From Cenococcum geophilum 1.58 (taxonomy: Eukaryota; Ascomycota; Dothideomycetes; Gloniales; Gloniaceae): DNA of 64,000 nt. The DNA lies in contig KV748220.1 in NCBI GenBank assembly GCA_001692895.1, positions 62,001 to 126,000 of the forward strand, in the 5' to 3' direction. Positions 39,541 to 64,000 of the stretch are shown here, in pieces; the first letter of the stretch is position 1, and every line of letters begins with the position of its first letter. Below the pieces are notes generated by a model. It saw only the letters and a program-made list of their open reading frames with translations, ran no database searches and was not told where the DNA came from. Made by a program: the position numbers and the translations under genes.

Positions 39541-40089
39541 CTATTCTCTAATGTGGGGTAAGTATGTTTTATAGGCGCCTCACCTGCGCCTTGCCTGCGC
39601 TAAGCCAGTTACGGCTAGTACGTCTTTATAGCCTAATAATTGCCCCCCCCCCTTCTTAAGCAGCTGTTTTTAGCCGATGCTATTATATAATAGGAGTGCT
39701 ATTATTATCTTTTACTCTATTAAAAAAGAAAATGGAGATCTGACTACCGGTTTTAGAGGGTTCTATCGCCGTTTTTAGAGGTCACGTCGCCAAAACTCCC
39801 CGCCGCCCTAAGCCTCTTACTTACCGCCCTATACCCTTACTTTTTAACAGGTAGACTATAATCTTCTATACGCCTAGCGCTAAAGCTATATAACTCTATA
39901 GCTCCCACCTCTAATCCGTTTAATCTAGGCCCCGTTTCTCTTATTCTCTACCCCCCTATCTCCTTAACCCTATATTGCTCTTTAGATCCTTCCCACCGTT
40001 ATTACCCTCTAGGTCCCTTCCGTTGCTACTACCCTAAGTTCTCTTCTAGCTCCCTAGAATACGGCGCGCTTAATTATTAAATTGTAGCT
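39541..40089. other. Upstream region of the DUF3435 relic; left edge of the degraded gene block
   Basis: No protein is recognised. Family A sequence ends near 39,540 and a CCTGCGCCTTGCCTGCGC stretch at about 39,590, a poly-C run near 39,645 and a CT-rich tract to about 40,030 follow. This may be the 5' terminal region and promoter of a large element whose first gene is the DUF3435 recombinase. Confidence 0.4.
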
Positions 40090-42655
40090 TATTATCTAGT
40101 GTTACTAATAATAAGTATATAGACACGGATAGCGACGGTAATAGCTACGGGATAGAACCAACCGTCTTTAACAGTAATGCCGATAGTAATGCCGATAGTA
40201 ACGCCGACTATAACGCCGATAGTAGTATTAACTATAACGCTAATAGCATTGCTAAATCTAACAATGCTTATAAAGCGCCTACTTAAGTATAGCTTTATAA
40301 GGATTAAGATTATCTACTAAAATACTACCTTAAACAGTTAAAAGAGTTTAAGGAATCCGATTTTATAATATAGAACTACGCCAATAGTAGTACGAATCTC
40401 CTTAACCGTATTAAAGATTAATAGTATTAGTAAGTAATAACCTATTCTACGGCTTTCTCTTAGGCTTAACCTAGAGCTGACTATTTCTAGATACTGCACC
40501 TATATAAGGAAAGACCCTAAGAAAACGTACTAAGTCCTCTCGCTTTAGCTACTTTATAGCTTTTTTAACTAGCTCCTAAATTAGAAACGAGGGAAGGGGG
40601 GTAGGAAATAGTGTGGGATAAAGCTTTCTAGCTTGCTTAGTGTATACTAGAAGTACTATTGCCTTATATATAAGAGAGCAACTAGTAGGAAAATTGCTAG
40701 TAAATTAACCCGCTAGATATATAAGGTAATTACGTTCCTAGTTAACCCTTTAGCCTAGTAAAATAAGGCGGAGCTAAAATATCTTTTTTAGGTACTTCGG
40801 AAACTGGTAAAAAAATATAGCTTAAGTAATAAGAAGCGAGAAAAGCCCGTTATAGATATAGAGGATCTCGCCCTAGTTCTTAAAACTAACTTAGTTATAA
40901 CAAGAAAAAGATATATAGTTAGGCGACATTAGATACAAGTCCATTTCTTACTATAGCTAGGCTTTTACACTATAAGCCGACCTAAAGCTCTTCTTAATCT
41001 ATGCTACTAATATATAATAGTTACACTTATTTATAACCTAGAAGGCGGGCCTTATAAAATTATGCTTAAGTTTATATTCAAATTCACTAAGGAATATCTT
41101 AGTATAAAAGAAGCATACGTTCTCTTTCTACCCTATTCCTCTTACCTTATACTTATAGAGAACTAGTAATACTTTCCTAATTCCTAAGATTATCTTTAAC
41201 CCTTTACTTATTCTTAGCCCTTATATCTTTCTCCTAGGCCTTCTCTTTACTAACTAAGCTTTTATACCCCCTAATCTAATATCCGCAAAGCAGCTTAGTA
41301 AGCTATATATTAAGCCTAGGCGTAATAAGTTGCCGCTACCACTCCGTTCAGACCTAGATAATATCCCCGTATTTTAGCAATTAATTAAAAACCCCTATAG
41401 CCACAAGGTCTTACTTAACGAGCCTTTACTATACTTAACTCTTTTGCCCTAGATTAAGGACCTTAGCGTAATTATGGGATTTCGGCAGGTTACGCGCCTA
41501 TATAGTCTCTATTACGGCGTAGGCAAGGCATTTAATAAAAATAGTAAGTTCTATTATATAGAGCTAGTTCTACTAAAACCTTTCTAACGCCTATACTACC
41601 TAGATAACGTAAGTGACGCCCTCTAGAACCTAATAATGTAGCATACTAACGCTTAAACATTCCTAAAGCACTACCTTCCGTAACGTGTTGGCGTAGATAT
41701 ACAGGCAATTATTTAAGGCTTAAAGCCTTAAGAAAAGTTAATAAAAGCAGTATACTGAATAAGCCGATTAATTAACTTACGGCGGCTATAGCACCTAATA
41801 ACAGAACAATCCTTATCGGTAAACGAGAACCTGCATATTTATTCCTTAATTAAAGTTCAAAATAAGCTAAAGCTTAGCCTTAAGCGTAAAACCATAGGAA
41901 GTATAGAATACTAAAAGCTTAGCCGAGAAATTACAAATAAAAGGCAACATTAGAGAAATGCGCTATTAGAAAATATTAAGAAGAATTAGGATAATAAATA
42001 AGCTATAATTAATATTAAGCGGCAACTTTCTGGGGTTATATTTAGCGAGGATATTAAAGCAACCTTAAAATCTAGTAATAATAGATCGGTCAAACATAAA
42101 CGCCTTATTAAAGTAATTATAACGCTACCTAGCACGTTACTAGAAGATAAGATACGTAGATATAATAATGCTATTAATACGGTCGTAGATTACTGTAATA
42201 TTAAGGAGGGTAGAGTATACCGGTTAAGTTATTACTAGAGATAGTTTAGGATAGATATCGCCCTTAGCCAAATTAAGATTAAAGAAGATACTAAGATTTT
42301 AGAAGCGGCTAAAGCGCTAAAGAGGGTAAGGTTATCCTTATATAAGGAGAAAAGACCAAAAATATACTTTATCTGCCTTAGGAATAAAAAGCTTATAATT
42401 AGTAAGCGTATATATAAGTTCTATACTCCAGCTGCTATTATAAAACATTTCTAAGGCAGTTATCTCTCTAAACTCCTATAGTAGGGTAAGATTAAATATA
42501 ACGTTTATAAAGTAACCCTTAAGCATAAAATGTATCTTTAAAACTATGTGCTTAGTATATATAGGACCTTTTCCTAGTTATTACGCGCTTATCTTATTAT
42601 TCTTTACCACTTTTTATTTTACTTTAGTCTGTTATTATCTAATCCTATTATAGTA
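40090..42655 (+). pseudogene. DUF3435 tyrosine recombinase (Starship captain / Crypton-type), RIP-inactivated
   Basis: An acidic Asn/Asp-rich N-terminus (SNADSNADSNADYN, about 40,170-40,210) is followed by a long degenerate frame. Landmark blocks are LIYNLEGGPYKIMLKFIFKF (about 41,030-41,090), EYLSIKEAYVLFLP, then GFRQVTRLYSL.YG.GKAFN (about 41,480-41,545, the Arg of the recombinase R box read as Tyr). VSDAL.NLIM.HTNA.TFLKHYL (about 41,610-41,680) is followed by the charged LKRKTIGSIEYQKLSREI, RQHQRNALLENIK stretch. A C-terminal zinc-finger-like end (YFICL, KFYTPAAIIKHF, KYNVYKVTLKHKM) lies at about 42,360-42,545. These blocks and their order are those of DUF3435 proteins, which include Starship captains. 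Gln codons are mostly TAA/TAG. The gene points into the block to its right. Confidence 0.85.
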
Positions 42656-43129
42656 TTTAATAGAATAGATATAATAACTAGGATTTTATAATTCGTCTAG
42701 AAGGGGTAATAGGTAGGGTAAGAGATAAGGGCTCCTCTTTAGCCTCGCTATATAAGCCTTACGCGTTATAAAATAAACTAAAACTAATAATTATAGACTA
42801 GAAAACGCTGCCTCCTTATATTATAGCTTAGTATTTTAACTAAGCCCTATAAAGCCTTAATCTAAGCTATATTAGGTTAGCTTAACTTTTCCATACCTAA
42901 TCTTTAATCCTCGCGTTCGCTTATATCTTACTTTCTTTCTTATACTTTTCTCCCTAGTTATTTCCTTATTATAAGACGCGCCCGACATATTCTTAACCTC
43001 CCTATATTTATTTGCTATTATACCGTCCTTATATACTAGCCTCTTTAACCTCCTTTCCCCGCCTACCTACCCACCCTTCCAACGTAGCTTTTAGCGCGTT
43101 TGCTTACAATAGCGAATCTCTCTAAATTA

Positions 43130-45514
43130 GAGATAATTAAAATAAACCCTATTAGGGAAGGACTAAATAGCTTTCTTAATTTATTTAACTTAACTTATTA
43201 GGATCTAGGTATCCCTAGCTCTCTAAACTCGTTACGCCAAATAGGCAATAAAGGTAATTATTAATTTATCCGTTATAGGTTCTCTCTAACATATATAGGG
43301 CTTAAAAATCTTATAGTTAACCTTATCCTGGCATTATAGAACCTTCTTGCTACTTAACTACTTCCGTCTAGCGCTAGCTGCGGCACTTTTTATAGTAACC
43401 TTCTCTAACTCCTCCCTTTAGTTAATTCTAACGACTTTAATATTAAACGGTTTACCCCTCTCCTAAAAATAGTTATTAATTGCGAATTAGATAAGGACGT
43501 TTGGAGTAATACTATCACTACTATAACAGAGTCCACGCCTCCCCCCTAACCACTACCACTCCACATTTAATAAACCCCACATTTACGCAATATAAATAGC
43601 TTTACTAACTCGTCCAAATATAGGGAATACGTAAATTATGTTCTAAAGAAGGAGCTAGGCCCTTTTTACGTAGGGATTCCTAGCTTTTATAAAGTATTCT
43701 TTAAGGGAGTAGAAGGTCTTAAAGAGGTAAGCGCCGCCGTTTTTAAGAAATGTAAGGAAGGGAACAATCCACTATACGCTAAGGGCGGCTAGCGTAACTG
43801 GCCTAAAAGCGTAGAGCAAGATAATATCCTAGAGTGGTTTAGTAGCCTAATTAAATTAATTTTAGGCTTTATAGAGGAGCACGGGTCTGCCCTAAAGACA
43901 CGATAAACGCTTATTATATACACTAAGCAGCCCTTATAAGGGTTTACAGTAAAGCAAAAACTAAATATTAGTTTTATAGATAATCTAATAGCTAGCAAAA
44001 GCTCTTAATACTATTAGTCGTATATACTTATACTAGGAGAGCTAAAGAGTAATCTAAACTCCGATATACCCTTATAGGCATAGTTTAATTTAGGGAAATA
44101 TATAAGAGAAGTCTTCGCCGCTTAAGACACTTATCGCTTTATCTTAGGCTTTACCCTCTATAGATCTATTATATGGCTATAGGAGTATAACCGGGTAGGA
44201 GGCATCGCATTATTACTATTTAATATTAATAAAGACGGACTATAATTTACCTCGGCAATGTTAGGATTTCTCTAAATAAATAAGGAGCAGCTTAGGTTTA
44301 ACCCTACTATTCTAATATTAGACGGCAAATAATATATTAAGGTTATGCGCAATAATCAGACCGAGCGTCTTATCCTTAATAAATCTATAAAGCAGGCACG
44401 CTGTATTACTAGTTAAGCAACTACTTACTAAAAAGCACACTATAAGGGGGATACCTCTAAGATACCCCTCGTTATTAAAGACTTATAGCAGTACCCGTAG
44501 CGCGAAAAAGAAGGTAAACTGCTACGTAAGGTAATAGAGAAAGAAGTAGTTAATATAGCCAGGTACTATTACCACAAGACAGTTTATATAGGCGGTAAAG
44601 AAAATAATATTTATAATAATGTCCGTAAGGGGCTGGATATTATAAGAGCGATAAACTATAAGCTAGAAAACTTAATAATGCCTTTAAAACCGGCTAGAGT
44701 AAAAATTAGAAAAGGCCGAAGTTTTAGTAGAAAGAGGTCGTCCAGCTATACTAACGCCCTATTACCGCCTAGTAAGCGTATATATTTAAGCTCTCCGCCT
44801 AAAGGCGGAAGGCACCCTATAACCCTAAATTGAGTATATTAACGCGTTATTACTAGGGACTATAGAAAGCCTCTTTATAAGGTAAGCTCTTAGGCTGCAA
44901 TACTTGCTATACTAAAGGGTAGCATTAAAGGATACGAGTCTTTATATACGCGGGCCGGCATTATTTAATATAACATTTTAATAGGCAACCTTATAATAAA
45001 CAAGGAAGACAATAATCCTTCTTAGCCGGCATTCTTAATCGACTTAAATCTTGCGATTAAGGAGTAGCGAGAAGGGCCTTTAGGAGCGCGGGGCAAGACT
45101 AGTATAAAAGCGTTTATAGCGATTAGAGTACTCCTAGACAAGATATACTTAGCTTAGCATAATCTTAAGTTGTTTTTTTAGGTGCTATTCTAGATATATA
45201 TTCACTATAATAGACCTAATAAGAAAGGCAATGTTGTTAATAGGTTTAATAAGTGGAATTTTATAAATACGGAAGAGCTAGCTAAGATAAAGAAAGGAAA
45301 AATAGATAATAAAGGGGATTTTCTTAAGAGTGCAGACAATAACTTTTCACCGTACTATTAGCCACTAATCCCTTAGGTTAATAGATTGCGGAAGGTAGTA
45401 TTTCTAGGCAGTAGGAGGCGAAAGGAAAAGGATAAAAAACTTTCTTCTTAAATAAAGGAGGTGCTTTAGGAAGTAAGGAAGGATCTAAAGGTACTAGTAG
45501 AGTAGATAAAATAA
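43130..45514 (+). pseudogene. FunK1 fungal-type protein kinase, RIP-inactivated
   Basis: The plus-strand frame matches the FunK1 family order. VWSNTITTITESTPPP (about 43,500) is followed by KKELGPFYVGIPSFY, VSAAVFKKCKEGNNPLY and RRNWPKS-like segments. Next come LGELKSNLNSD, RFILGFTLYRSII, GGIALLLFNINKDGL, IEKEVVNIARYYHHKTV (about 44,540-44,590), and a Ser/Arg-rich insert (KGRSFSRKRSSSYTN). The catalytic region at about 44,960-45,000 reads AGII.YNILIGNLIINKED, where relatives have a catalytic Asp and this copy has Asn. LIDLNLAIKE replaces the Mg-binding Asp region. RIP stops are frequent. FunK1 kinases are widespread in fungi and often multi-copy. Confidence 0.9.
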
Positions 45515-46435
45515 TATTTTATTATCTTATACTCTTCCACATATAAGTAAAGTTTTATAAAGATTTAGGTAGTAAAGGCTAGGTAGCAGCCTTAGTCAAA
45601 ACGTATGTAAAATAGCGTAGGGCGAGCAAACTGTTCCGTGGTTAATATATTATTCCTACTTATTTATACGCCACTAAATATGCGATTATACCTAAGTTTA
45701 CTATAAGTGCACTAATCTCCAATATATGGTGAAAGCTTAGTATATAAAATACTATAAGACCTAAAAAAGATGCCCAATAAATGTGGCTAATAGATGGTTT
45801 CTTTTAGGTAATTGTAAAGAAATATAGTAAAGATACTAGTAAAAACTATAGCAAAAGCCTGGCCAGTTATTGAGATTACTGTATAGTCTTACGTAGCTTA
45901 AATTTAAACGGGTCAAGTACGGCGTAATATTTAAAAACATTAGGCAGAAAATATAAGAGGGAGGCTTTTTAAAATGGCTTTAGAATCTAGTTTCCTTATA
46001 TAGGCATAGGCCTACTCTAGGAATATTTAATACCTTTTATAAGCTTTATTTTTCTATAAGTAGATAAAACATAGCCCTATATAAATCGGGGATATAGTAA
46101 TTCATTAAGCCCTTTTTAATAGAAATTGTGTTATGTCAGGACTACTAGTTATTAAAACCCTAGGTTAAAAGTAATATTTTTTTTAAATATTTGCCCCTAA
46201 GCAAATAAGAACTATAGATTTATAGGCGAACACCGCCGCTTTTAAAGGCCTATGCGTTAACGTCGCCTATAAAAGCATAGTTCCTATCGCCGTTTTATTT
46301 CCAGCTTTAACCACCATTTCTCTCCCACAGCTTTATACCGTCTATACCACCTATACCACTAGTTCTTTTTTATTCCTTCTATAGTTTTAGATATCCTTTA
46401 ATAGTAAAACTACGTATAAACCACACCCCTTTATT
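45515..46435. other. Intergenic, with an imperfect hairpin
   Basis: No protein is recognised. An imperfect inverted repeat pairs 46,208-46,229 (ending TTTATAGGCGA) with 46,263-46,284 (starting TCGCCTATAAA). It could be a terminator-like or MITE remnant. Confidence 0.4.
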
Positions 46436-48950: not shown

Positions 48951-49059
48951 TTTAACCAACTAATGCTATATCTTAATAACTTGGCTCTATTTAGTCGCAG
49001 GCCTTTAGTAGAGTTATATCTCTTAGCGCTATCTAATTCCTAGCTAAAGTATTTAACTA

Positions 49060-50275
49060 AAGTACTCTACAAACGATAGAATACTTTAGCGGTAACTCTA
49101 CCCGCACTAGCATATTATCCTCTTTTATATTACTGTATATTTAACCGTCCAATCCCTTATATACTATATTAATAGCATTATAAATTAATTACTGGCTAAT
49201 AAAGCACCTCTTTTTAAGTGTAGGTGTGTAGTACTAATATTCGCGGATATGTTCTTTAAGTAGGTCTAGTATCAACGTCTCTAATATAGAGAGTTGCCGA
49301 CAATAAGACGTCGTAGGTAAGATAGGGAAGTGTATAGATCTTAGTGAAGTTATTTCTTATATAGAACTTTTAAAAGTTCCTAAGCTATACAGTAAAAAAA
49401 GGACTGGGGCATAGGCTATTTTAAAGGCTACTAGGCAACTTAAGGTGTCTAGTATAAGCTAGGTAAGCGCCTAGGGTAAGCTAAATAAGCGCCTAGGGTA
49501 AGCGCCTAAGGTAAGCTAGGTAAGTATCTAGCGTAAATAAGTAAACTACTAGCTAAGTAAAAGGCAAGCTACGGCTTTATCTAGATTAAACCCAAGGCGT
49601 GTTTCTATAAGTTGTACTTTTAGCTATTTAACACATCTTTAATTAAGTTTATTGTTTGCTTTAGAGATTATATTCCTACTAACTATACTCTATTTTATTA
49701 AAGCACCCAATAACTAGTTAACCTATTTATCTATATTATTCAGTCTCTCCTTAATCTTAAGGACCTTCTTTATTACTACCTCTATCCTACAATTATATCG
49801 CCTAGCCGTCCACTTAAATATTTCGTGATTAAAATTAAGAATTAATATATTGTAATCTAAATCGCTAACGCTAGTTTTAATATCCTATAGTTAATACGCG
49901 AAATTTTCTAGCTCCTCTTATTATTTATTAATTACCTTATAATAATTAGAATGGATACACCTACTTTACTATTACTCGGCTCTAAGTTGTTAGACCTGTT
50001 TTTTAAGGTCTTCTAAGGTCTTTACTAATGTCTTTTATTGCTGCGCAAATGCTTCCAGCCGCGCCTTATATATATATTGCCACTTCATAAAACAATCAGC
50101 TAAAGTAGCCCTAGCACCCCTCTTTAGGTACTATTATACGGCTTATATTATATTATAAAGAGGTTTAGAGACTTTTCTAACTTTTCTACCTTGCTTTATA
50201 GGATACAGCTATAACGGCTAGTTAGTTAAGTAGATTTATTAAGATTAGACGCTAGCTTATATAGTAATATACAAC
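49060..50275 (-). pseudogene. Coiled-coil protein of unknown function, RIP-inactivated
   Basis: The minus strand from about 50,275 downward reads ITI.ASV (start region), GARATLADCFMKWQYIYKA and RLEAFAQQ, then a heptad-rich stretch (KTLVKTLEDLKKQV, EELENFAY.L.DIKTSV). It continues through LILNFNHEIFKWTARRYN, VLKIKERLNNID and GFNLDKAVACLLL. Stops are at expected Gln codons. The central part is strongly helical and charged. It starts just downstream of the kinase relic on the same strand, so the two may have been neighbouring genes in one module. I do not recognise the family. The 3' limit is uncertain (49,060-49,450). Confidence 0.6.
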
Positions 50276-50329
50276 ATAACTAGTAGAAGGATTATAAAAG
50301 TTCTTAATTAATATATAGCTATTAATAAT

Positions 50330-51620
50330 AGGGCTTAGCTATTAAAAAGTGGGAAGAGTGAAAACTTATATATCTTATGCATTAGCAGCTCTAATACCCC
50401 CTATAACATTTTAGGTACGCTAAGTTATATCTTAACTAATTCTAGCGTCTATACGCGTTATACTATAACTAACTAATTTAGCGCTGTATCTAAAGTTAGA
50501 ATAAGGCTGGAAATATCTTCCACTTCTGCCTTGTTGTCCTTTTAGCTACCTAAACATATAGGATTAGGCACAACGGGCCCGGTAATTTAAGTAAAAACTC
50601 GTCCTACTATACCGTTAAACCTATAATAAGGAATAAAACCCAGAAACTGTACTTCACTAAGAGAAAATAGCGGCTGCGAAGAGGTTCTATTAAGGAAGTC
50701 CTAAGCTATATCTAACTAGCGTTCTGGGTTTTATAGAGTAAGGCTAATTAATTACTACAAAACCATTCTAGGCTCTATTAATTACATTATAATACGGCTA
50801 ATAGCCTTTATATTAACATCCTCCAAATAAAAAGCCGCTTAAAGTATACTTTCACCTATATTTACTACTTAACCGTTAGCTTTTTATTTTAAGATAACTA
50901 TTAGATACTTACCAATCTTAATTTCCCCACTCCTTAAAATTAGGAGATTTTAGCAATTTAATAAGCCATAAATAATATAAATGCTATAGATAAATAGAAG
51001 TCCTTAGATTACCTATATTTAAAATTAGAGGCTGGTTTTAAATAGAATAGCTATATTACCTCCTTGCAGACTATAGCAATTTTAAACTCTGCTAATATTC
51101 TAAAAGGGCTGGCCTAAATATCTACTAACAATACGGATAGGCACTCGTATATTAGATATACCATTTCGCCCTCTTTAAATACTTCTAAAATATTAACAAT
51201 ATTAGGGTAAGGTAACTTTAAGCATTCTAAACCGTTTACTATCTTATTCGTTACTCTTATCTTAATAACCACAATAGGGAAAGTTGGCTCTATTTTAAAG
51301 GCAATAACCACAGATCCTACCTAATCTTCTTTAAGCAATTTACGGTAGTAGTTCTACGGACTTCTTAAAACTATAAGGGTCTCTAGTTCCTTTAATAGTA
51401 GAGCGGTTTTTTTACTATTAGCGGTAGATAATAATAAGAAGAGCCCTAAATCTCTATTAACTTTAAGCGGAACATAGAACGGTATACGCTTACGCTTATA
51501 AATATACTTTCATTTTATAAGTATATTAGGCCAATCCTAATCCTCGTTTATAGTAGGTTTAATCATTTTAGCGTTTTTTTTATATACTAGGAATTTAGTA
51601 ACCCGTCTTTACAAAGACAT
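50330..51620 (-). pseudogene. Protein kinase domain gene, RIP-inactivated
   Basis: Starting at ATG 51,620 on the minus strand, the frame passes RIPFYVPLKVNRDLGLFLLL, KELETLIVLRSP and NYYRKLLKED. It then enters a kinase N-lobe: VVIAFKIEP...VVIKIRVTNKI (51,311-51,240) and LPYPNIVNILEVFKEGEMVY LIYECL (51,215-51,130), the usual HxNIVxLLExF and hinge pattern. The catalytic loop is badly damaged. A C-lobe stretch (EDISSLILTLDTALN, VPKMLQGVLELL) follows to about 50,380. The 65-codon stop-free piece 51,114-51,311 is the best preserved part. Stops elsewhere are RIP-type. Confidence 0.8.
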
Positions 51621-51959: not shown

Positions 51960-54350
51960 CTATACCTCCTATACCTATCTACTCAAAACGCTCTCTATTA
52001 GCAATAAAAAAATTATACCTAGTATTTACTAAATCCACTAAAGTGGATTTAAATCTTAGAGATAACGCTAAGAATATATAAAGCCTATAATTCGTATAAA
52101 GATATAGAATAATTAACTTTTCCTAAATCATTTCTAAGAACGTAGAGTTATTAGGTAAGGGTATTAGGTTATTCTCGCTTAAGGGTATATTAGTAGTTAG
52201 CCTTTAACTAGCTTTTAACTTAGGGTTCGTTATATTCTCTATATTATAACCTAAGGGGTTCCCTATACTAGGGCCTAAGGCTCCTAAGTTAGAGCTTAAG
52301 GGAGGCTCTAAGTTAGGGTTTAAGAGAGTGCCTAGTGGCCTACTACTTAGTCTTTAGACAAGCGGCTTTAAAGGTTTATTAGGAACCCTAAAAACAGTAT
52401 AGAATATATCTCACTTAATATAAAACGTTAAGGTATATTACTTTACCTAAATAGGCTACTAACTATTTATATTTTTAATAAATAAATATTTCCTATTAGC
52501 AATATGGGATTGTTTAAACGGTCGACTATATTAGTATATTTTTGGCTAACGAATGAAGTTATTTATAAGAAATGGGAAACTTATATAAGGATAGCGACTT
52601 AGTATATCTCTAATTATTTAACAAATCCGCTGTACTTGCTAAAGTATAAGACTCGGCTTAAGCTTAGAGAGAGTTCTAAGGTAAGTTATACTAAGGAAGT
52701 CTTCTACTATATTCTCTATATAATTCGTATATATTAACTAAGTGATCTTATTAGAGCTAAAGCCTAGTCTTCGTGTAAGGAATCCTAGCTATTCCTATAA
52801 TATATCGCATAGCTTAACCTTTAGTTTAGGCTTACCGAGGTCCTTTTGGAGTATTATACTAGTAAGTTAAGGAAAGTATTATATAGCAAAAAGCTAAATT
52901 TATAGGTAGCCAAGCCTAAAGTTTAATTCCTTTAAATTACTTTCTTCTATAGTGTAAACGCTTTCTGCTGTTTATATACTTATTTAGCCTTAATTTAATC
53001 CCAGGTAGGCTTGTCCCATAGCTATTTATACTATACCTTTAAATTTATTTAGCAGAAGTCTTTTAACCACCTTAAAGCACGGTTTAAAACATTTTATATC
53101 CTTAAAAAATGTATATAGAGAAGGAATTCGTCCTAGGAAATTCTTTAGGCGCTTTAAGATTCCGCTTCGTACTTAGTAAGAAATAACAGCTAGGAAGAGT
53201 TAACCATCCTTTATAAGATTTTCAATCTCTAATCTATTATATAATAAACCTTAAGGAATAAGAAGCTTAATAAGAAAAACTATACGAGAATCTAAGAGAG
53301 GCATAAGGGCTTTGTTATTGTTAAGTATATATAACCATAAACTATAAATATAGTTAAAATAGTAAATAAGCTCCTATACAATATTAGTTATAAATTTTAG
53401 CCGGCTTTAATTATTATAATTACCTTATTGCATTTTAAAGTAAAAATATAATATAAAGTGCCTAGCTAAAGTGCCGGCTAAAGCCCAATAAGTAAAAAAA
53501 GGTTATTAAATGCATCGCGGAGACGCGGCATTTTTTTAAGCAGTTTTTTAATATCCTTTTTTTTACTTTTAGAAAGCCTAGAAAGCTATTTGTTTTCTTA
53601 TATAAGATCTACGTAACGCTAGAAATATTAAAGGTGTTGAAATATATCGCCGTCGCAGAATAGGCGTTTATTTAAATATTCCGTTCAAAGTTCTAAGATA
53701 TAACTTAATAAAAGGCCTTTATAGATTAGTTTTAGATTACGTTATTCTATACCTTAGGTTAACTTACTATTAAGATACAACCTTATAACCTACTACTTTT
53801 CCCTTAGGGTAAGGTAAGCTTTACCTATTTTAATATAATGTTAACTATATAAGCAAACTACTATAGAGTTATTATTAAGCAGTAGTTCTAGCGGCTCGCT
53901 TTAATAGTCTAAAAGATCTACCTATATTAAGTTAGACTTACGTAGACCTTTATTAAGGGTTTTTTAACTAATTAGAGCTAATATATAGTGTTCTAGCTCT
54001 AAGCGGTAGCAGCCTTTTATCTTAAAGATATTAATAAGTCGGAGAACTTTTTCCTAATTAAGGGTCTGAGCTCCTTTAACCTTCTAATACTCAAACTTTA
54101 AAAATAATAAGCGGATCTTTATATCCCTATAAAAATAACTCTATTTCTTATTAAAAAGAGATAAGTTACACTCTAACTTAGAATCTATTGCCTTTAACTT
54201 TAGCCTTTCTAGGTATATTAAAGCATTTTCTAGTTAAAATAGGTTTATTTTATTTTTATTATAATATATAAATAGCTTTTTTATTTTTTTATATCTGTTA
54301 TATTATACTATATATAATAATATATACCTTTAGATTAGGGGTTTACCAGT
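51960..54350 (-). pseudogene. DUF3723 family protein, RIP-inactivated
   Basis: The minus-strand frame contains LFNKK.SYFYRDIKIRLLF and KVLRLINIFKIKGCYRLELE (about 54,090-54,030), then HYILALIS.KTLNKGLRKSN. The family hallmark CLHGRHRI appears as CLYS.HYIKIGKAYLTLRE (about 53,845-53,790), consistent with RIP on both strands. It is followed by LFCDGDIF.HL.YF.RYVDL (about 53,670-53,610) and LSKSKKKDIKKLLKKMPRLR (about 53,575-53,520). Long C-terminal blocks (RMVNSSQLLFLTKYEAES, RALRWLKDFC.INLKVQ, then a poorly conserved tail) run to about 51,970. DUF3723 genes are of unknown function but are frequent passengers of Starship elements. Plus-strand readings of this region are artefacts. Confidence 0.8.
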
Positions 54351-54354
54351 CTCT

Positions 54355-54600
54355 AGTAAAATATTAGGTTACTAATAACTAATAGGTGGTTTAAAAATAG
54401 TAGAAAAGATTATAAGAAATTAAGAGATCCTAACGCCTATCTATGTCCTATTTATAGCTTATTTCTATCCTTTTACTCTATAATATCTATCTACTAGAAG
54501 CTTAGTAGAAGTTACCTCCTTCTAAGGATCCTGCTGTTATTAGCCACTTTCTTATAGCTATTCCTGTCCTATCTAGAAATAGAAAAAACGCCTCTCTTTC
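54355..54600 (-). repeat. Short stretch homologous to the LINE ORF1 tail
   Basis: The reverse complement shares AGAAGGAGGTAAC, AGAGTAAAAGGATA.AAATAA and ATTTTACTAG with 6,365-6,545. It may be a LINE scrap upstream of the DUF3723 relic, or both may descend from another shared repeat. Divergence is high. Confidence 0.4.
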
Positions 54601-54612
54601 TTTCTTTATATA

Positions 54613-54687
54613 AAATAGTTTTTATAGAGAGAGAGAGGGTCCTAGTTGCCTTTATATCTTCTCTCTCTCTATAAATAGCTTTTTTTG
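54613..54687. repeat. GA/CT hairpin
   Basis: TTTTTATAGAGAGAGAGAGGG pairs with CTTCTCTCTCTCTATAAATAG across a loop of about 25 bases. Confidence 0.65.
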
Positions 54688-55430
54688 CCTTAAATACTAA
54701 TATTATTAAAACTATTCTGTTATAAAGCTAATATAAAGATTCCTATAAGAGTATAACGCCTAAACTTAGCTATATTTAAGTACTCTTATATACTTACTAA
54801 ATAAAGTAATAAATTCTTTTCTACTTAATAATTATATCTTATAAAAACCACGCTACGTAGCTATAAGTGGCTAGATCTACTAGCTTTATAATTAATAACA
54901 CTTTTTAGCTAGGCTATATTATTTAAGCCTTACTAAACCCTACTTTATAGACGCTGAGTTTACTTCTATTCCTAAATAAAAGGAGTAAAAATATTGCTTT
55001 ACGGCAGCTATTTCTATATAATAACTTTAAGAGGCACAGCTCTAAGGGAGTTTTAAATATCTAAATTAATATATTTTTGACAGCGTATAATAACCCAATT
55101 ATCTTTATAAATGGTAATTTTACTAGCGCTGTCCTATCTTACCTAGCGCCTATATCCTACTATAAGAGCACCACTTATATAGTGGCTTGGCAGCCCCCTA
55201 GCGGACAGTTAGTTATTAACGCTATATTTACTTATATTATACTACCTTTTATTACAGTTCTTACCGTATTTATTAATAACTTTAATTCTATTAAATAAAT
55301 TCTTACCTTTTTTAAATAATGGGCTAATATTAGTAGTTACGCAGGTGTCCTCCTAAGGACTAGCCTTAGTTTAATTGTTATTTCTTTATAAAAGAATATA
55401 ACGAAAGCTAGAGCCGTTTACACAAGTGCT
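54688..55430. other. AT-rich interval, no recognised gene
   Basis: A plus frame of 73 codons (55,077-55,298) lacks similarity to anything I know and has a hydrophobic C-terminus. It could be chance or a degraded gene piece. Nothing else is seen. Confidence 0.35.
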
Positions 55431-56465
55431 TACACTATAAAGATTTTCTTATAAATTGCCGTGTTTAAGATAGACGGCTTTTTATCTCCTCTAGCAGGCC
55501 ATAGGCCTTTAAAGAAGGAAATACTAAGATAAGTTAACGAGATTAGATATCATTTACGGCTTAAATACCAATTATTTACTACGCATTACCTTAATACGCT
55601 CTATTAGGCAGCGCTACTATATATAGCTATAACCGCTATAGAGCCCTTTAATATTATTTAAGTAACTTAAAAGTATTATATATATAAGGATCTTAGTAGT
55701 TATATAAAAACCATTATAAAGCTTAGGAGGGAGGGGAAGATCCTTTATAAAGACGTTACTAAGTTTATCGCATTAAGTATTTTAATAGATGTATATCCTC
55801 CATAAGTATATAGTAAAGTCACCTTCTTTATACTATTTCTTTTAACTAACTATTTTACTAGATTTTGTACTAAGGCAAATTTACCGTTTACTATATCGAT
55901 CTGCATTTATTTATATATTATTAAAAGTCTTTAACGAAAGTATAGGAGAGTATTAGAGCCGCTAAGCTAAAAAGCATATCTATAGTCTTTTTAAATTATT
56001 ATAAAATATACCTTTTATAAAAGCCTAAGCTCTAGATATTCGTTTATATTAGGCCTATATTAAAACAAATAAGATATACCTATTCTATTACTTTTAAACT
56101 CCTTAGTATATGCTTAGTTATGGCCACACTATTTATAACATCTACGTTTAAATATTTAGCGATATAGTAATAGGAGTAGAGTATAAATATACTATTAATG
56201 CCTATATTCTCTGTAAAGCAGTTTTATCTATAGGCTCTCTAACTATAAAGCTAAAGCCGCCTACTTATAGTATCCGTATCCTTAGAATTAATAGTAGTAG
56301 TATAAGAGGCGTAATACCTCTAGAGTTCCTTTTACAAACCTAAAATTTATTTAGGTCCTGTATTATCTAGGACTTCTTTAATATAGTTATTGGTATAAGC
56401 TCCGGTAAGTAATCTATCTATTATTTAATACGGCGCTTATAAAAATAGGCGACCTAAAAGCCTTA
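55431..56465 (+). pseudogene. Patatin-like phospholipase, N-terminal part (split by copia insertion)
   Basis: A RIP-stopped frame starts near VFKIDGFLSPLAGHRPLKKE (about 55,460-55,520). It runs through an N-terminal extension and reaches the patatin core at about 56,265-56,400. The oxyanion loop is read as INSSSIRGVIPLEFLL, where families have DGGGIRG, and the nucleophile motif as DFFNIVIGISSG (GxSxG kept, Ser present). Glycine to serine/asparagine changes fit RIP G-to-A transitions. The gene is cut at the CTTAT duplication (56,466-56,470) and continues at 62,846. Confidence 0.88.
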
Positions 56466-56470
56466 CTTAT

Positions 56471-56644
56471 TGTCGGAACGTTAATCATATAACGTGGTCA
56501 CGGGACCACGTAGCGAGGTTAGCTAACCTAACCTTGGAGCAACCCCTTACTTCTAGTAAAAACAAAACAACTACTAACTTCAACACCGCATACGTACCAC
56601 TACAAGTAATATTTATGCACGTTGATAAAGCGAGTATACCGACA
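56471..56644 (+). repeat. Copia 5' LTR
   Basis: 174 bp. It contains the perfect palindrome-like CGTGGTCACGGGACCACG (56,501-56,518) and TTAGCTAACCTAA. Confidence 0.93.
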
Positions 56645-57180
56645 CTAATTAGTAGACGTACAGATTAGGAAATACGCAATAGCAAAGCTTAAAACTACGC
56701 ATTAGCTTAACTGCTAACGCGTTAGATTGTAGAGCTATCGCCCTATTTTAGTTAAAGGAGAAAGCTACGTTACCCTTAAAGCTCGAGACCACGTATTAGC
56801 TTGCTAATACGTTAAATCGCCTAGAGGACCCTTAAAGCTCGAGACTACATATTAGCTTAATTGCTAACGCGTAAAATCGCCTAAAGAATTATATCTTTAC
56901 TTAGAGAGAGCTACGTTACCCTTAAAGCTTAAGACTATGTATTAACTTAACTGTTAACGCGTTAGATCGCCTAGAGGACCTTAAAGCTTAAGACCACGTA
57001 TTAACTTAACTGCTAACGCGTAAGATCGCCTAGAGGACCATATCTTTGCTAAGAATCGTCTTTAGTCTTTAGTCTTTAAAAACTATAGATTTATTAAGGG
57101 GACACGCACACACCCTTATACCCTTACCTTTATACCCCTAACCTTAACCTTAACCTTAACCTTAACTTTTAAACGACAAC
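56645..57180 (+). repeat. Copia leader: reiterated AACGCG segments and telomere-like tract
   Basis: Repeats of a unit with TTAGCTTAACTGCTAACGCGT and CGCCTAGAGGACC occur about five times between 56,700 and 57,050 (period about 70-110 bp). At 57,115-57,170 lies ACCCTTATACCCTTACC followed by four to five AACCTT hexamers, which resembles but does not equal the AACCCT telomere repeat. Confidence 0.6.
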
Positions 57181-57184
57181 TACC

Positions 57185-58010
57185 CTTATATATAAAGACA
57201 CGATAATATAGAAATTGACTAAAAGGAAAGAATTGCTAAATACGGCTACGGAATCGACTTAGAGACGGCTATAGATAACAATCTAGCGGAGTATATAGAG
57301 ACTAAGATGCACTTATATACACGGTATAACCTTATAAACTTTTTACTATGGACAGTATATTAGAAAGACTTTAAAGACTTTACACCAGAGCTCTTTAAAT
57401 AAGTACGATCCAAAACTAGAGCGGGAATCTATAACTACCTAGTTAAGAGAGGAGTATACGTTGTTAAGCAAGATAAGAGGCATACCCTTAGCAAGGTACT
57501 AACGGACATCGCTAATAAAAAAGAGTTTCATAAATAAATAAACAAGGAGCTTATCGCGGCCCTTATAGAGGTAAAGCTAATAATTACAACAACTCTATAA
57601 GACCAACTTAATTCGACCTTAAATAAGCTTGCTATACCTCCAGCCCTACCACTAAGTACTCCACCAACTCCACCAGCTATTCCAGCCGCTGTACCACCAG
57701 CTATTCCAGCCGCTGTACTACTAGCTACTCCGATTGCTGCACCACCAGCTACCCCAATCGCAGCACCGCCAGCTACCCCGGTCGCTACCCCCACTACCCC
57801 TACTACCCCCCCCAGATCTACTCCGATTACTACACCGCCAGCTACTCTAATCACTACCCCTACTACCCCCGCTACCCCTCCTAATCCTTAATCCTCTAAT
57901 TACAACCAAATCTACGCTCTTATTAACCAACTGCTATAGCTAAAAGAGCAGCAACTGTAGCAGCTATAGCAACCGCAGTAGCCATATATACATATACTAC
58001 CCAAACTAGC
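57185..58010 (+). pseudogene. Copia N-terminal gag-like region with Pro/Ala/Thr-rich linker
   Basis: A degenerate frame with GYGIDLETAIDNNLAEYIET and GIYNYLVKRGVYVVK opens the internal region. It is followed at 57,630-57,890 by a low-complexity tract of CCACCAGCTAYYCC units encoding Pro/Ala/Thr/Ile repeats. The 108-codon frame on the opposite strand is its shadow. A Gln-rich stretch follows to 58,000. Confidence 0.6.
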
Positions 58011-61000
58011 TATGCCTAGCGTAGAGCAAGGACCTAAGCAAGAATCTAGATATAATAAGGAGGTAGCTATAATTACAAAGATCTATATAAACAACCAAAA
58101 GTACAATAAAGTTAATAACAGCTTTAACTTTAAGCTAACTATCTTCTATAACATCTATAAGAGATCTAGCTTACCACTAGAAGGCTATATAGTGGCATTC
58201 CCTAGCATACTAAAAGGGCTTGCTTAGGACCACTACTATAACAGCAACCTTAAGTTAAAACCTTTTACTAAAGCCTGTAACCATATACGACAGTTCTTTA
58301 AAGGGCCAGAATACTACTATAAGAATCTTATAGAGTGGAACAGTATAACCCTCTAAGAAGTTATAGATGAGAACCCTAACAAGTTAATCTATTAGAACTT
58401 CCAACTACTTATAGATAAGCTGCTAAAGTAACACTACGGACTACACCTAGACTTCCGTATAAACCGCATTCTTATAAATAAGCTAGTTACTGCTTGCTAG
58501 GGAGTACTAGTATACCGTATTACTATTTCCAACCCTTTAAAAGACCTCTCTTAGTTAATTAGTAAGCTATAATCCTCTATTATTACGTAGGAAAAAGAAC
58601 ACCCCCTATAGGCCTTAATAAGATCGTCTCATTAAGCCTTCTTTACGGATTAACGCTATTACTAAAATAACTAGAATTAAGACTAAAACACTAATCACTA
58701 TAGTAGCAATTGCCCCTATAGAACTAACGGTAGACTAAAGGCCAAGTACTACGTCTGCAAGAAGGAGGACTGCTATTTATAAAAATATATAGAGGAGGAG
58801 CGTAATCGGTCCAGAGATGACTATAAGAGACGTTTTATTGATATTAAGGGCCGTAATAAGGGCAACTTTGACAACCACTTTAAATAATACGTCGCCATCT
58901 GCGAAAGAGATAAAGAGGATAACTTAGACTTTAAAGCCTACACATACGACGCTAATAACTCTAGAAGCAATGCCGGAGAACCTAACAATAGTTCTACCTA
59001 TATTACTACCTTTAGAACACTTACTACAGAGAAAGCAACCTCTATAAGCGTAAAACTAGCCAATAAGGCTTATACACACCTGCTTATGGTTTTAGAACTT
59101 ACCACGAAGTTCACCACGGAACCTTATACGGAGACCAACCCATTTGCCTATAATACGGCTATAGCCACAGCGTTATAATATACCTTAACGGTCTTTATAG
59201 GAATTATAATTAATATAGGTGCTTCGCGTAAGTCTATAGCTGGCTACGGTCAATTCTAAGCTTTATAGGCCGTAGATAAGTCCGTAAGTCTTAATACGTT
59301 AACTAAGAGCTAAGTAACTATCTAATTCGGGATTAGAGCCTCTACATCTATCGGAACCATAGACGTTAACAGCCCTATAGGCAAGGTATAATTCCATATC
59401 ATTAAAGCAAATACTCCCTTCCTACTTTGCTTAGCAGATATAAATAGACTCTATATTAAATACGATAACCTAAAGGACGTTATTATTACTCGCACTAAAA
59501 GGGTGCTAGTAGTTAGACGATTTAGCTACCCATTTCTCTTATAGAGCTTCTCCTTATAGTCTTATTTAGTCGAGTCTTTTAATATAAACCCTTGCTACTT
59601 AACTAACGTAGAACTACAACGTCTACACCATTAATTTAGTTACCCGTCAGTTAATAAACTGCAAAAGCTTCTTAATAAGGCTGGCTACGGCTATAACACT
59701 AATAGATCCGCTATTAAAGAGCTAACTAGACTCTACTACTATTGCTAGAAGTATAGCAGATCTCTAGGTAAATTTCGCTTCACCCTATAAGACGACATTA
59801 ATTTTAATTATAATATCATCGTCGACATTATATATATTAGCGGCTCCCCCCTACTATACGTAGTTAACGAAGCAACTCAATTTTAAGCTAGTAGATAGCT
59901 ATAAGATATCAGCGCCAAGCACACTTAGGACACTCTACGGATGTACTAGATTAATAGCTACTTAAGACCACTAGACCTAATCACCACAAACGCCAAGAAG
60001 AACTTTATTAGTAAGGAGTTTAAGCACTACGCTACTACTATAGGAGTAACTACAAAGTCAGTTCTAGTCAAATTACACAATTCTATTAGAATGGTAGAGC
60101 GCTACTATGGTCCGCTATGACGAGCCTACTAAATCATTACGACTAAAATCCCTAAAATTAGTAAGGAGATAGCCCTATAAATGGCCTTTAAAGCTATTAA
60201 TAACACGGCTAGCCTAGAAGGCCTAGTCCCTATACTCCTAGTCTTCGGAGCCTACCCCCAAATGGTTAAATTAGATACGCCATCACCTTCAGTTATATAG
60301 CGAGCTGCGGCTATTAAGAAAGCAATAGTGGAAATCCAGAAGCTATAAGCTAAACGACAGATTACTAATGCTCTTAATATGCAAAACGGACCACAAACTA
60401 ACGCCATTTATGGCCTCCCACCCAGTTCGCCTATCTTAGTCTAGAGAGAAGGCAATACTAGCCAGAGTGGTTATTAGGATAGGCCACACACGCTACTTGC
60501 CGTCGACGGTAAGACCTATACCGTAAAGCTACCAAATAAGCCTATAACCTTTCGCTCTACGGTCGTAAAACCTTACCTACTAGACCTATAAGACCTAGTT
60601 AAACCACAAGAGCCTGTTAAATTAGCTAAACCAGTACCTTTATTAGCTAAACCTCAATCGTTACCTAAAGCCAAACCACAGCTACCGCTAAAGCGAGGCA
60701 GAGGTCGCCCCCATAAATACCTATTGCTTACGGCCATCGCAGACACAGCTACTATAGACGCTACGATAGATACAGGTGCTTTTACGGGTGATATTATAGA
60801 TATTACTAATATCGCTATCTACTTACAGAATAATGATAACACCTAATTTAGCGCTTTATAACAAAAGGAGGTCACAGGCCTACTTAAGAAAGGCGTCTTT
60901 AAGATCATTAAGCTACGCGATATACCAAAGGGGGTCAAACTCTTTAACTTACGGTTTATTAATAAGATCAAGAATAAGGGAACCGATAAAGCCTTTAAGA

Positions 61001-62396
61001 AATCACGACTTATTATACAGGCCTATAATAATTTAGAGAAAAAGCTAGTCCTTACTTAGTTACTAATAATTTAACGGGTTAGCCAGCGGCTAATTCTCTG
61101 TATCGCTGCTATGCTACCATAGACACAACTCTACCTCCGAGACATCTCACAAGCCTATATCTAGTCCACTACGAACCTAAACCGCGAGTTCTACGTATAA
61201 CCACTATATAAGCTAAATAAACAATTAGGAATTAATACGGACTCCATTCTAAAGGTTATAAAGCCACTTTATAGAGTACCTAAAGCTAGAAACCACTAGT
61301 TTAAGACCTACCATTTACACTACGTTAATTAGCTATAAATAAACCAGTCTACGTACGACCCTTACTTACTCTACAGCAATAAGCCTTTTAGAATTATTGG
61401 CCTATAGACTAACGATATACTGTTCCTTACAGATAATACCTTTATAGAGGCTAAATAAAGCAAACTATATAAGGCCAAATTTATGGCTAAGGAGCGAGAG
61501 TAATTAACTACTAATATACCAATTAAGTTTAATGGAGGACTTATTTAATTAATATAAGATGGGAGTATTACGCTAACGCAAAAGCGCCAGTGTAAGAACC
61601 TTAGTGTGGTTAACACTACGCTAGTAGACAGCACTAGCTCTAGAGGAGTTACGCGTAGCCTGCTTATGTTAAAGGACTAGTATATTGCTTAACGCGCCAG
61701 AGGAGCCTATATTGCCTTAGTCTGCTAGCTAGAGGCCTTATTTAACCTATCCTTTACTACCTAGGTAATTAACCTAGTTAAAGACAATATAAAGAGTCTT
61801 AATAAGCAATTAAGCTAGTAGATTAAGAACGCAAATAGAGGCCTAAAGTTTGTTAAGCTAGACGTTAATACTTTATAACTCCTGGTATTTACGGACGCTT
61901 CCTTCGCCAATAATAAGGACTTATCTTCGCAAATTGGCTACATACTTATACTAGCAGACGCCTTAAATAAGGCAAATATCGTTTACTAGTCCTTAATTAA
62001 GTGCAAAAGAGTCACTAGGAGTATATTAGCCTTAGAGTTATACAGCATAGCGCATAGTTTTAATATAGGCGCTATAATTAAATCTATGCTAGATAAGGTC
62101 TTATAGGTTAACTTACCACTCGTTTTCTGTACTAATTTAAAGTCTTTATATAACTGTCTTATCCGACTAGGAACTACGCAAGAGAAACGCTTAATAATTA
62201 ATATAATATGCCTTTGTTAAGCTTATAAACGAAGACAGATTACTAAAGTTAAGTAGATTAATGGAGATACTAACCCTACGGACGCTATAACAAAGGGTAA
62301 GCCCTATACGGCACTATTATAGCTTATTAACACAAATTAAGTTAAATTATAGGCTGTAGGGTGGGTTAAGCAAACGGATTCGACTTTAGTTTAGCG
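58011..62396 (+). pseudogene. Copia gag-pol: gag, integrase, reverse transcriptase, RNase H
   Basis: From ATG 58,012 (MPSVEQGPKQESRYNK) a long frame shows gag (FTKACNHIRQFFKG, LIEWNSITL) and a Cys-rich segment (YYVCKKEDCYL). A protease-like region lies at about 59,190-59,420. The integrase zinc region LHHQFSYPSVNKLQKLLNKA is at about 59,619-59,680, and the integrase core VDIIYISGSPLLYVVNEATQ is near 59,822-59,880, with its later Asp read as Asn. RT covers about 60,870-61,480 (KAFKKSRLIIQAYN, YLRDISQAYIQSTTNLNREF, TNDILFLTDNTF), and RNase H (LVFTDASFANNKDLSSQIGY) is at about 61,882-61,940. This is copia domain order. Stops are mainly former Gln codons. Confidence 0.92.
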
Positions 62397-62410
62397 TTAG
62401 CGCTAGTACT

Positions 62411-62460
62411 AAGCGAGCCAATAGCGATTTTCCATCCCGGGGATGGAAAATCCTAATTAG
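62411..62460. repeat. 12-bp-arm palindrome shared with gypsy B LTRs
   Basis: GATTTTCCATCC (62,426-62,437) and GGATGGAAAATC (62,441-62,452) are perfect inverted arms around CGG. With flanks AAGCGAGCCAATAGC and CTAATTAG the block equals the reverse complement of about 21,868-21,925 in the family B LTR. Confidence 0.8.
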
Positions 62461-62474
62461 TTAGCAGAAGTTAG

Positions 62475-62582
62475 GTTCGGTAGAATTTGGCAGAATTCGG
62501 TATTATGGCAGAATTCGGCAGAATTTGGTAACATGTCAGAATTTGGCAGAATTTGGTAATATGGCAGAATTTGGCAGAAAGT
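62475..62582 (+). repeat. Tandem GGCAGAATTTGGTAATAT-type repeat before the copia 3' LTR
   Basis: About three to four copies of a 28-30-bp unit built from GGCAGAATTYGG and TAATATGGCAGAA lie between pol and the 3' LTR. Confidence 0.8.
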
Positions 62583-62666
62583 TGCTATTGCGTATATACT
62601 ACAAATAGCCTAGAAGTAGACTTAACTTTAAAGTATAGATTAGTCTTCTTTTTAGAGTTGCTCTAG

Positions 62667-62840
62667 TATTGGAACGTTAATTATGTAACGTGGTCACGGG
62701 ACCACGTAGCGAGGTTAGCTAACCTAACCTTAGAGCAACCCCTTACTTCTAGTAAAAACAAAACAACTACCAACTTTAACACCGCATACGTACCACTATA
62801 AGTGATATTCGTGCACGTTGATAAAGCGAGTATACCGACA
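62667..62840 (+). repeat. Copia 3' LTR
   Basis: 174 bp, nearly identical to the 5' LTR with a small number of differences, mostly transitions. It is followed by CTTAT. Confidence 0.93.
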
Positions 62841-62845
62841 CTTAT

Positions 62846-64000
62846 ATTTCTTTATGGATAGGACGTTACCTAATACAGCGAAACATTTAACTAAACCCTT
62901 ACGCAATTTTTTAAAAGCCAAAGGCCTATATCTAAGTCATTCCTCTTACGTTTACGCGGTTATCTCTATATATAGCTTTTAGACGGTTAGTATAACGCTA
63001 TAGCTTTAGAAAAATACTTTAAAAATATCTTTAGGCTAATAAGACGCTTAATAAATCCGATAGCTTCGGCTTACTTAGGTATAAAGGTAGCCGTAACAGC
63101 TACCAATATTTTAGACGTGGTACCTTTTTTATTTTCTAATTACAACCCTTCCGCAGAAAAGACGAGTGGTTTATTTAATAATAATATTAGTAAAGTAAAT
63201 AATATAACTAAGGCTTTTAGTAGGCTATAAGTATACTAAACCAAAAGAGAATAGTATTAAAGAGATTCTATATATCTGGTAAGCGTAAGTTAACCTTTAA
63301 TAAACTAGGCTTCTTGCGCTAATTACTAAATAGTACTAGGGCTACCTCTACCGCCCTAGTATATATATTTAAAGCCCTTTAATCTTCTCTTTTACTACCT
63401 ACTAATTAATTAATAAGGTTATTCCGGGCTGTAAAACTAAAATTATTTAGCGCCTTTTAAAATAGGAGATTAAAGCACAATAATTTAATAAGCCTTAGAC
63501 TTTGCGAGAGTTGTTATATTTAGTCTAAAGACTATAGGGCTAATATAGTCCTATTTCTTAGAACTGGCACTATAGAGAGCTAGTCGCCTTAAGCTCCACA
63601 TTTTAGGCATATCTTTAATAATAGGTTTATTCTAAGACTCTATCAATTATAGCTTTCTTTTTTTAATGGCGAAAGAATATAGAGGGATTTTACTGTATAC
63701 TTAGACGACAATTTAAAAGTGAACTACTTTCGTTTTAATATAAAGCTAGAGGAATCGATGGCCATTAATAATACTTTAATTATGGCTAAGTTACGGGAGA
63801 TAGTATAGATACAGCCTTACGGAGCTGCGGAGCGTCAAAGATTAGTCCTATTACTCTTAGCTTTATCCTTTTTTTTTAAGCTGGACTACACCCTAAAATT
63901 TAATATAGGATTTTATAGATATAAGGGATCAATTTGCTACCAAAACCAAATTAGCGCAATTACCGACATGATTAGTCGCATATTCCCTTTAGCAATAGAA
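62846..64000 (+). pseudogene. Patatin-like phospholipase, C-terminal part, runs off the window
   Basis: The frame resumes the patatin domain after the copia element. Segments are FKSQRPISKSFLLRLRGY-like (about 62,910-62,960), ALEKYFKNIF, KVAVTATNILDVVPFLFSNY (about 63,083-63,145) and ATS..VYFKPFNL-like (about 63,340-63,375). The D-G-G/H-N-N region is degraded near 63,425-63,490. It continues with LISLRLCESCYI and ANIVLFLRTGT (about 63,540-63,575, relatives LSLGTG), FRHIFNNRFILRLY, FNGERIQRDFTVYLDDNLK, YFRFNIKLEESMAINNTL and QPYGAAERQRLVLLLLALSF. The last 250 bases have few stops. The gene continues beyond 64,000. Confidence 0.88.

What the first reader, a model, noticed from the sequence alone, without database searches (positions are those of the whole stretch)
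39541..64000. Probable RIP-killed Starship-like giant element: DUF3435 captain, DUF3723 and patatin-like phospholipase in one block
Seen: a DUF3435 recombinase relic at the left edge transcribed inward (40.1-42.7 kb), then FunK1 (+), a Pro-rich gene (+), coiled-coil (-), protein kinase (-), DUF3723 (-) and patatin-like phospholipase (+). Established: Starships are large fungal transposons moved by a DUF3435 tyrosine recombinase located near one end and often carrying DUF3723 and patatin-like phospholipase genes. Inference: the block is a degraded Starship or relative, and the linked kinase/coiled-coil/Pro-rich/FunK1 genes are its cargo. Such an element would be hidden from gene predictors because every ORF is broken by RIP.
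Basis: partly seen in the sequence, partly recalled or inferred. Interest (0 to 1): 0.9.

Follow-up and report, generated by a model that had tools for sequence, protein, structure and literature searches.

The report
RIP-killed Starship giant transposon copy
The right part of this fungal DNA window is one end of a dead, roughly 64-kb jumping element of the Starship kind that once spread to several places in the same genome and was then ruined by the fungus's own mutation defence.

Summary
Stop-tolerant profile scans find the DUF3435 captain (+), FunK1 (+) and DUF3723 (-). A second kinase has weak support; the Pro-rich and coiled-coil genes were not established.

The window is C45:62001-126000 of a 177-Mb genome, probably Cenococcum geophilum. 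The left end is window 39711: 39 of 39 other scored copies start there. The right end lies ~45 kb beyond the window. Four copies with both ends measure 63.7, 63.7, 69.8 and 72.9 kb at unrelated sites. TTTACT stands at both termini. The window's own copy has lost its last ~180 bp.

Copies differ almost only by transitions (2048:24 over 21 pairs in 1.1 kb), concentrated at CpA: nearly identical when RIP struck, so a burst and then a kill. At least 95 DUF3435 loci lie in this genome. A sister captain lineage carries different DNA directly after the captain.

RIP-killed Starships are described already; this is a new member of a known kind. The copy number and clean burst-and-kill record are unusual.

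The parts
39711..64000 (+). Part of the RIP-degraded Starship that lies in the window; continues to C45:171225 (109225 in window numbering), where it is cut ~180 bp short of the true end
   Evidence: 39 of 39 other scored copies begin at window 39679-39714; first base from 9 left ends; right end
39711..39716 (+). Left terminus TTTACT (candidate direct repeat; the same 6 bases stand at the right terminus)
   Evidence: TTTACT in 8 of 9 left ends (C5b TTTCCT) and 5 of 5 right ends; exact crossover point not proven
39718..39738 (+). Imperfect terminal inverted repeat, 17 of 21 matching the right end
   Evidence: 23 of 3000 random pairs from the element score as high; suggestive only
40113..42574 (+). 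Captain: DUF3435 tyrosine recombinase relic, transcribed inward
   Evidence: Pfam; tblastn P0002 residues 51-734 onto 40293-42574, P0019 from 40113; conserved H and Y kept
43997..45196 (+). FunK1 / Pkinase_fungal relic; with its flanks (about 42741-45626) it is also a dispersed repeat of its own
   Evidence: E 1.7e-70; 31 other places; 39 of 394 candidates scored
49560..50100 (-). Possible coiled-coil gene relic, read by eye only
   Evidence: translation; no profile hit
51003..51395 (-). Possible STE20/PAK-like protein kinase relic
   Evidence: E 0.0076; E 0.21 and 0.11 in two other copies; weak
52390..54011 (-). DUF3723 relic, nearly whole profile in two frames
   Evidence: E 1.3e-42 and 3e-25
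54283..54669 (.). Short dispersed repeat inserted in the element; absent from copy C17, where the two flanks overlap by 16 nt
56275..56470 (+). Patatin-like phospholipase relic, 5' part (nucleophile-elbow region), ending at the copia insertion
56471..62840 (+). Nested Ty1/copia LTR retrotransposon (174-bp LTRs, TSD CTTAT at 56466-56470 and 62841-62845); not Starship cargo
   Evidence: RVT_2 E 8.6e-4, below the cut-off; absent in 6 of 6 other copies read
62846..63480 (+). Patatin-like phospholipase relic, 3' part (LKHNN region)
   Evidence: no patatin among PDB matches of this half

Best explanation
39711 onward is the 5' third of a ~64-kb Starship: a fungal giant transposon moved by a DUF3435 tyrosine recombinase (captain) that sits at the 5' end and reads inward. 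Shown: captain family, inward orientation, shared left and right ends, four copies with both ends at unrelated sites, DUF3723 and patatin-like auxiliary genes, and RIP-type differences in every copy compared. Inferred: the captain joined the element's ends to a TTTACT/TACT-type target; the element multiplied in a short burst while copies were near-identical; later sexual cycles recognised the repeats and RIP turned CpA into TpA in them, killing captain and cargo. The copia insertion in the patatin gene was found only in this copy.
For: DUF3435, FunK1 and DUF3723 profiles; sharp left edge in 39 of 39 other scored copies with unrelated flanks in 9 aligned ends; collinear body in C52, C5a, C5b, C9a, C6 and C31, and in C17 from DUF3723 on; shared right end in 5 of 5 copies; four copies with both ends, 63,724, 63,661, 69,783 and 72,929 bp; Ts:Tv 2048:24 over 21 pairs and 65 of 68 columns with C before A variable, same pattern at both ends and in a third stretch; one-sided paralogous empty site for the left junction of copy C15; conserved captain residues.
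Against: No strain comparison, so no presence/absence polymorphism. The direct repeat is not proven at a two-sided empty site. The inverted repeat is weak. The window's own copy lacks the last ~180 bp, and another repeat (starting TGTTAG) begins at the cut. Patatin and the second kinase fail Pfam's thresholds. Right ends were not located for C9a, C15, C17 and C31, nor left ends for C9b and C17.
Confidence: 0.93

Rival explanations
1. A small DUF3435 (Crypton-like) element at the left, next to unrelated RIPped repeats; the other genes are not its cargo.
For: At 10 of 12 further captain loci similarity stops at window 42722-42731, just after the captain, and the FunK1 stretch is a dispersed repeat by itself.
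Against: Seven loci (window included) carry captain, FunK1, DUF3723 and the patatin region in the same order, with the window's spacing in C9a, C5b and C52 and insertions in C5a, C6 and C31; four reach the same right end. The 10 diverging captains belong to a sister lineage (8-12 transversions in about 500 bases).
Confidence: 0.03
2. Segmental duplication of a repeat-rich region rather than transposition.
For: Copies are large and near-identical apart from RIP.
Against: Left ends coincide to the base in 9 aligned copies and right ends in 5; the sequences directly outside are unrelated, except that C52 and C9b are broken at the same base of one repeat family on the right. The ends carry TTTACT and the captain is the first gene.
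Confidence: 0.02
3. A giant captain-driven element outside the recognised Starship families, a sister group with the same logic.
For: The captain is only 44-50% identical, piece by piece, to its best database match, no captain of a named Starship family was compared, and FunK1 is not among the genes named as typical in the passages read of PMC12134995.
Against: Captain position, auxiliary genes, size and a TTAC-containing terminus all fit Starships as described (PMC12153272 and PMC12134995 passages).
Confidence: 0.05

Closest known systems
Derelict RIPped Starships: the Pi-rho elements of Paecilomyces variotii and Spiromastigoides (PMC11623301, passages) and the GtA element of Gaeumannomyces (PMC11905480, passages)
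   Same: Captain-led giant element with RIP over it; size within the 15-700 kb range given for Starships (PMC12134995 passage)
   Different: Here four complete and several partial near-identical copies lie in one genome, RIPped in every copy compared, besides 39 other scored left ends of the wider captain family. Gene content was not compared with those elements
Aspergillus fumigatus Janus (Phoenix family), target A(N3)TTACTA(N2)A(N15)CT (PMC12153272, table passage)
   Same: A TTACTA core also stands at the right end here (TTTTTTACTAARTA)
   Different: Neighbouring target positions do not match; captains were not compared, so family membership is not claimed
Hephaestus family, target TTAC(N7)A (PMC12153272 passage)
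   Same: TTAC at both termini; 4 of 5 right ends read on as TTAC(N7)A (my reading)
   Different: C6 does not fit; captains were not compared

Membership tests
Starship | DUF3435 tyrosine recombinase as first gene at the 5' end, reading inward | tested here: met
   left end 39711, captain from ~40.1 kb on + strand
Starship | Tyrosine recombinase catalytic residues in the captain | tested here: inconclusive
   H and Y invariant in 14 of 14 relatives are kept in the window; a conserved upstream R is readable. That these are the catalytic ones is recalled, not tested
Starship | Defined left and right boundaries, large size (15-700 kb) | tested here: met
   four copies of 63.7-72.9 kb with both ends; in the window's own copy the right end is lost
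Starship | Short direct repeats flanking the element | tested here: inconclusive
   TTTACT at both termini (8 of 9 left, 5 of 5 right); one-sided empty site for C15 reads TTATT|CTACTA; no two-sided empty site
Starship | Terminal inverted repeats (frequent, not universal) | tested here: inconclusive
   17 of 21, reached by 23 of 3000 random pairs
Starship | Auxiliary genes such as DUF3723 and patatin-like, plus cargo | tested here: met
   DUF3723; patatin by motif; further relics JmjC (E 7.5e-5) and MADS/SRF (E 1.4e-5), both just under Pfam's cut-off
Starship | Same element at different sites (transposition) | tested here: met
Starship | Presence/absence polymorphism between strains | not testable with these tools
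   only one genome of this fungus is held; one search says it has no relatives here
Ty1/copia (nested element) | LTRs, 5-bp TSD, copia reverse transcriptase | tested here: met
   LTRs and TSD firm; RVT_2 E 8.6e-4 but below the curated cut-off

The most novel reading that the evidence does not exclude
In this fungus a Starship family behaved like an ordinary high-copy transposon: a fast burst put many near-identical 64-kb copies into one genome, RIP then killed them together, and captain modules were combined with at least two different cargo sets. Starship bursts would then be a cause of the genome's swelling, not rare passengers.
Probability: 0.5. Interest if true: 0.72.

Novelty: new member of a known kind. 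Interest (0 to 1): 0.6.

Why it matters
In the papers whose passages were read, Starships are mostly delimited by comparing strains. Here one genome holds a time-stamped set: RIP fixed the copies at near identity, so transversions and private insertions (the copia, the short repeat missing in C17) can order events, and both ends of a giant element come out without a second strain. If true more widely, annotation from gene models would undercount Starships in RIP-active, repeat-rich fungi (inference).

Tried and rejected
Rejected: patatin absent. Pfam gave no hit and none of 131 candidates, but motifs in other copies and PDB matches of the 5' half overrule this. Rejected: true right end at C45:171225. 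In the 5 other copies aligned the sequence goes on ~180 bp to TTTACTAARTA; in C45 another repeat begins there, and the missing tail was not found in C45:42001-246000. Rejected: missing rows as absence. Searches did not list C52, C5a or C5b, yet these have 30.1 kb between matched ends where C45 has 30.0; only the best candidates are scored. Rejected for want of evidence: sister-lineage elements ending like this one; 4 of 4 stretches fetched at predicted ends (C29, C9, C11, C50) show no match, so those right ends are unknown. No result: Rfam, DUF3435 with PF17667 in papers (0 papers), kinase homologues. The ten paper searches (open-licence PMC only, listings) showed no title or abstract on this element; the one paper holding both Cenococcum geophilum and Starship was not opened.
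Full report
What was checked. The finding names a RIPped block, 39541-64000, with a DUF3435 recombinase at its left edge and six further genes. All six frames of the block were scanned against Pfam with X at stops. DUF3435 (+), FunK1 (+) and DUF3723 (-) are beyond doubt (E 1.6e-66, 1.7e-70, 1.3e-42 for the best pieces). The DUF3435 gene aligns over nearly its whole length to fungal proteins found (41 proteins at E <= 0.001 among 7994 candidates scored); the best, from Coniosporium apollinis, matches residues 51-734 of 734 onto window 40293-42574. The RIP index is 1.04-1.48 in every 2-kb bin of 40-64 kb.

The patatin gene and the hidden copia. Pfam missed patatin. A direct repeat pair proved to be the LTRs of a 6,370-bp Ty1/copia element at 56471-62840 with CTTAT on both sides and a copia reverse transcriptase trace (RVT_2, E 8.6e-4, under the cut-off). 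The same place was then read in six other copies: 6 of 6 lack the copia and run straight across. Copy C52 keeps DGGGIRG followed by GISSG; 5 of 5 PDB matches of that piece at E <= 10 are patatin-like phospholipases (E 0.006-0.45; that the CapV-type enzymes are patatin-like is recalled). The strict motif pair occurs 0 times in 600 kb of simulated sequence and 0 times in the 204 kb of C45 itself, where RIP has gone further. The second half has only the LKHNN/LKYNN motif (6 of 6 copies) and no patatin among its PDB matches. The copia's LTRs differ by 11 transitions and no transversion in 174 bases, so it was RIPped too.

Ends of the element. The window is C45:62001-126000 of a 177,193,698-base genome in 162 contigs. 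With 39001-41300 as query, 40 of 677 candidates were scored: the window itself and 39 others, and 39 of 39 start at window 39679-39714. Alignment of 9 left ends gives the first base as 39711, with unrelated sequence outside. Successive queries to the right follow the same loci to C45:171225, where 5 of 6 listed copies stop together (C31 stops earlier). There C45 itself is cut by another repeat that starts TGTTAG; the 5 other copies go on ~180 bp to TTTTTTACTAARTA and then diverge. Copies with both ends measure 63,724 (C52), 63,661 (C5, minus strand), 69,783 (C5, plus strand) and 72,929 bp (C6) (from coordinates taken by hand). In C52 and the two C5 copies the spacing from window-equivalent 74000 to 104001 is 30.1 kb against 30.0 kb in C45. 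TTTACT stands at both termini (8 of 9 left ends, 5 of 5 right ends). The termini also carry a weak inverted repeat (17 of 21; 23 of 3000 random pairs as good). One paralogous empty site was seen, for the left side only: the left flank of copy C15 recurs uninterrupted inside the flank of copy C9a, and the break falls at TTATT|CTACTA. Right flanks of C52 and C9b belong to one repeat family and are broken at the same base (80% over 155).

Burst, then RIP. In 1.1 kb beside the copia, 7 copies (21 pairs) differ by 2048 transitions and 24 transversions; 65 of 68 alignment columns with C before A are C/T variable. At the left end (9 copies) pairs differ by 55-105 transitions and 0-3 transversions; at the right end (6 copies) by 38-65 and none; in the kinase stretch (4 copies) by 83-116 and 0-1. 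The copies were therefore nearly identical when RIP began. C17 looks older: it has 3-4 transversions against each other copy and lacks the short repeat at 54283-54669.

Sister lineage. At 12 further captain loci the sequence after the captain was fetched (12 of the captain loci). In 10 of 12 similarity to this element stops at window 42722-42731; C60 goes on to 42921 and has only 2 transversions in 520 bases; C80 shows no captain end in that stretch but a 65% match to the copia. The 10 differ from the window's captain by 8-12 transversions in about 500 bases, and 8 of the 10 share at least 1.4 kb of their own downstream DNA. So one captain clade leads at least two cargo sets. Where the sister elements end is unknown (no match in 4 of 4 stretches). 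The 39 left ends therefore include both lineages and do not count copies of the 64-kb unit.

Genome scale. The DUF3435 profile gave 165 matches with 100 of 346 candidates scored; the 150 listed rows merge to 95 loci on 51 contigs, a lower bound; 0 of 14 control genomes match. One captain, at C49, is not RIPped (index down to -0.55) and its element is 83% identical in DNA to a second captain element that lies just right of this one on C45 (115478-118535 in window numbering).

Host. Genome size (177 Mb against 178 Mb for Cenococcum geophilum, PMC5816826, passages read) and a C. geophilum gene model 75-77% identical to the RIPped captain outside gaps suggest that fungus. This is inference.

Known or new. 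Starships with a 5' DUF3435 captain, short direct repeats, and often DUF3723 and patatin-like genes are established, and RIPped derelict ones have been reported (PMC12134995, PMC11623301, PMC12153272, PMC11905480: passages found by term search; none read whole). This is a new member. The number of near-identical dead copies in one genome is what a specialist would notice. In one Verticillium strain most repeats in Starship regions lack RIP (PMC12289983 passage), the opposite of what is seen here.

Noticed in passing
C45:177478-180535 (window numbering 115478-118535; L008): A second DUF3435 captain element starts ~6 kb right of the dead Starship's cut end; it is of another captain lineage and 83% identical to the C49 one.
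   Followed up: partly
L029 and L042 (C49:751000-764500): An un-RIPped captain, GC ~0.5, with one in-frame stop in the domain reading; may belong to a younger Starship.
   Followed up: partly
window 42741-45626; also 152965-155773 in window numbering: The FunK1 gene with its flanks is a dispersed repeat in 31 other places (39 of 394 candidates scored), beginning close to where the captain module ends.
   Followed up: partly
L043-L054: A sister captain lineage has a G-rich tract of GGGTAAGG type right after the captain and then different DNA; the segment 95.2-104 kb (window numbering) recurs 7-16 kb behind three other captains, C29, C11 and C9:705502.
   Followed up: partly
window 54283-54669: Short repeat with many relatives in the genome (709 first-look candidates for the whole query), absent from copy C17 with a 16-nt overlap of flanks; SINE-like by its habit.
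   Followed up: partly
window 20606-39434: Large inverted and direct repeat pairs (arms up to 1.06 kb, mostly 85-90% alike) directly left of the Starship, probably copies of another transposon.
   Followed up: no
window 12001-20000: The only 2-kb bins with a negative RIP index in 204 kb of C45; dense 12- and 15-base tandem repeats lie at 11.7-12.5 kb by its left edge.
   Followed up: no
L004 3471-3827 (+); L005 4911-5009 (-): Further cargo relics right of the window: JmjC (E 7.5e-5) and MADS/SRF (E 1.4e-5), each just below Pfam's cut-off (20 chosen frame stretches, not all frames).
   Followed up: partly
C9:1330679-1331395: A DUF3435 match lies about where the right end of copy C9a would be expected, as a second captain follows this element on C45; the right end of C9a was not located.
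   Followed up: no
P0023: A Pseudogymnoascus gene model carries a protein kinase domain and DUF3435, so a kinase next to a captain may recur elsewhere.
   Followed up: no
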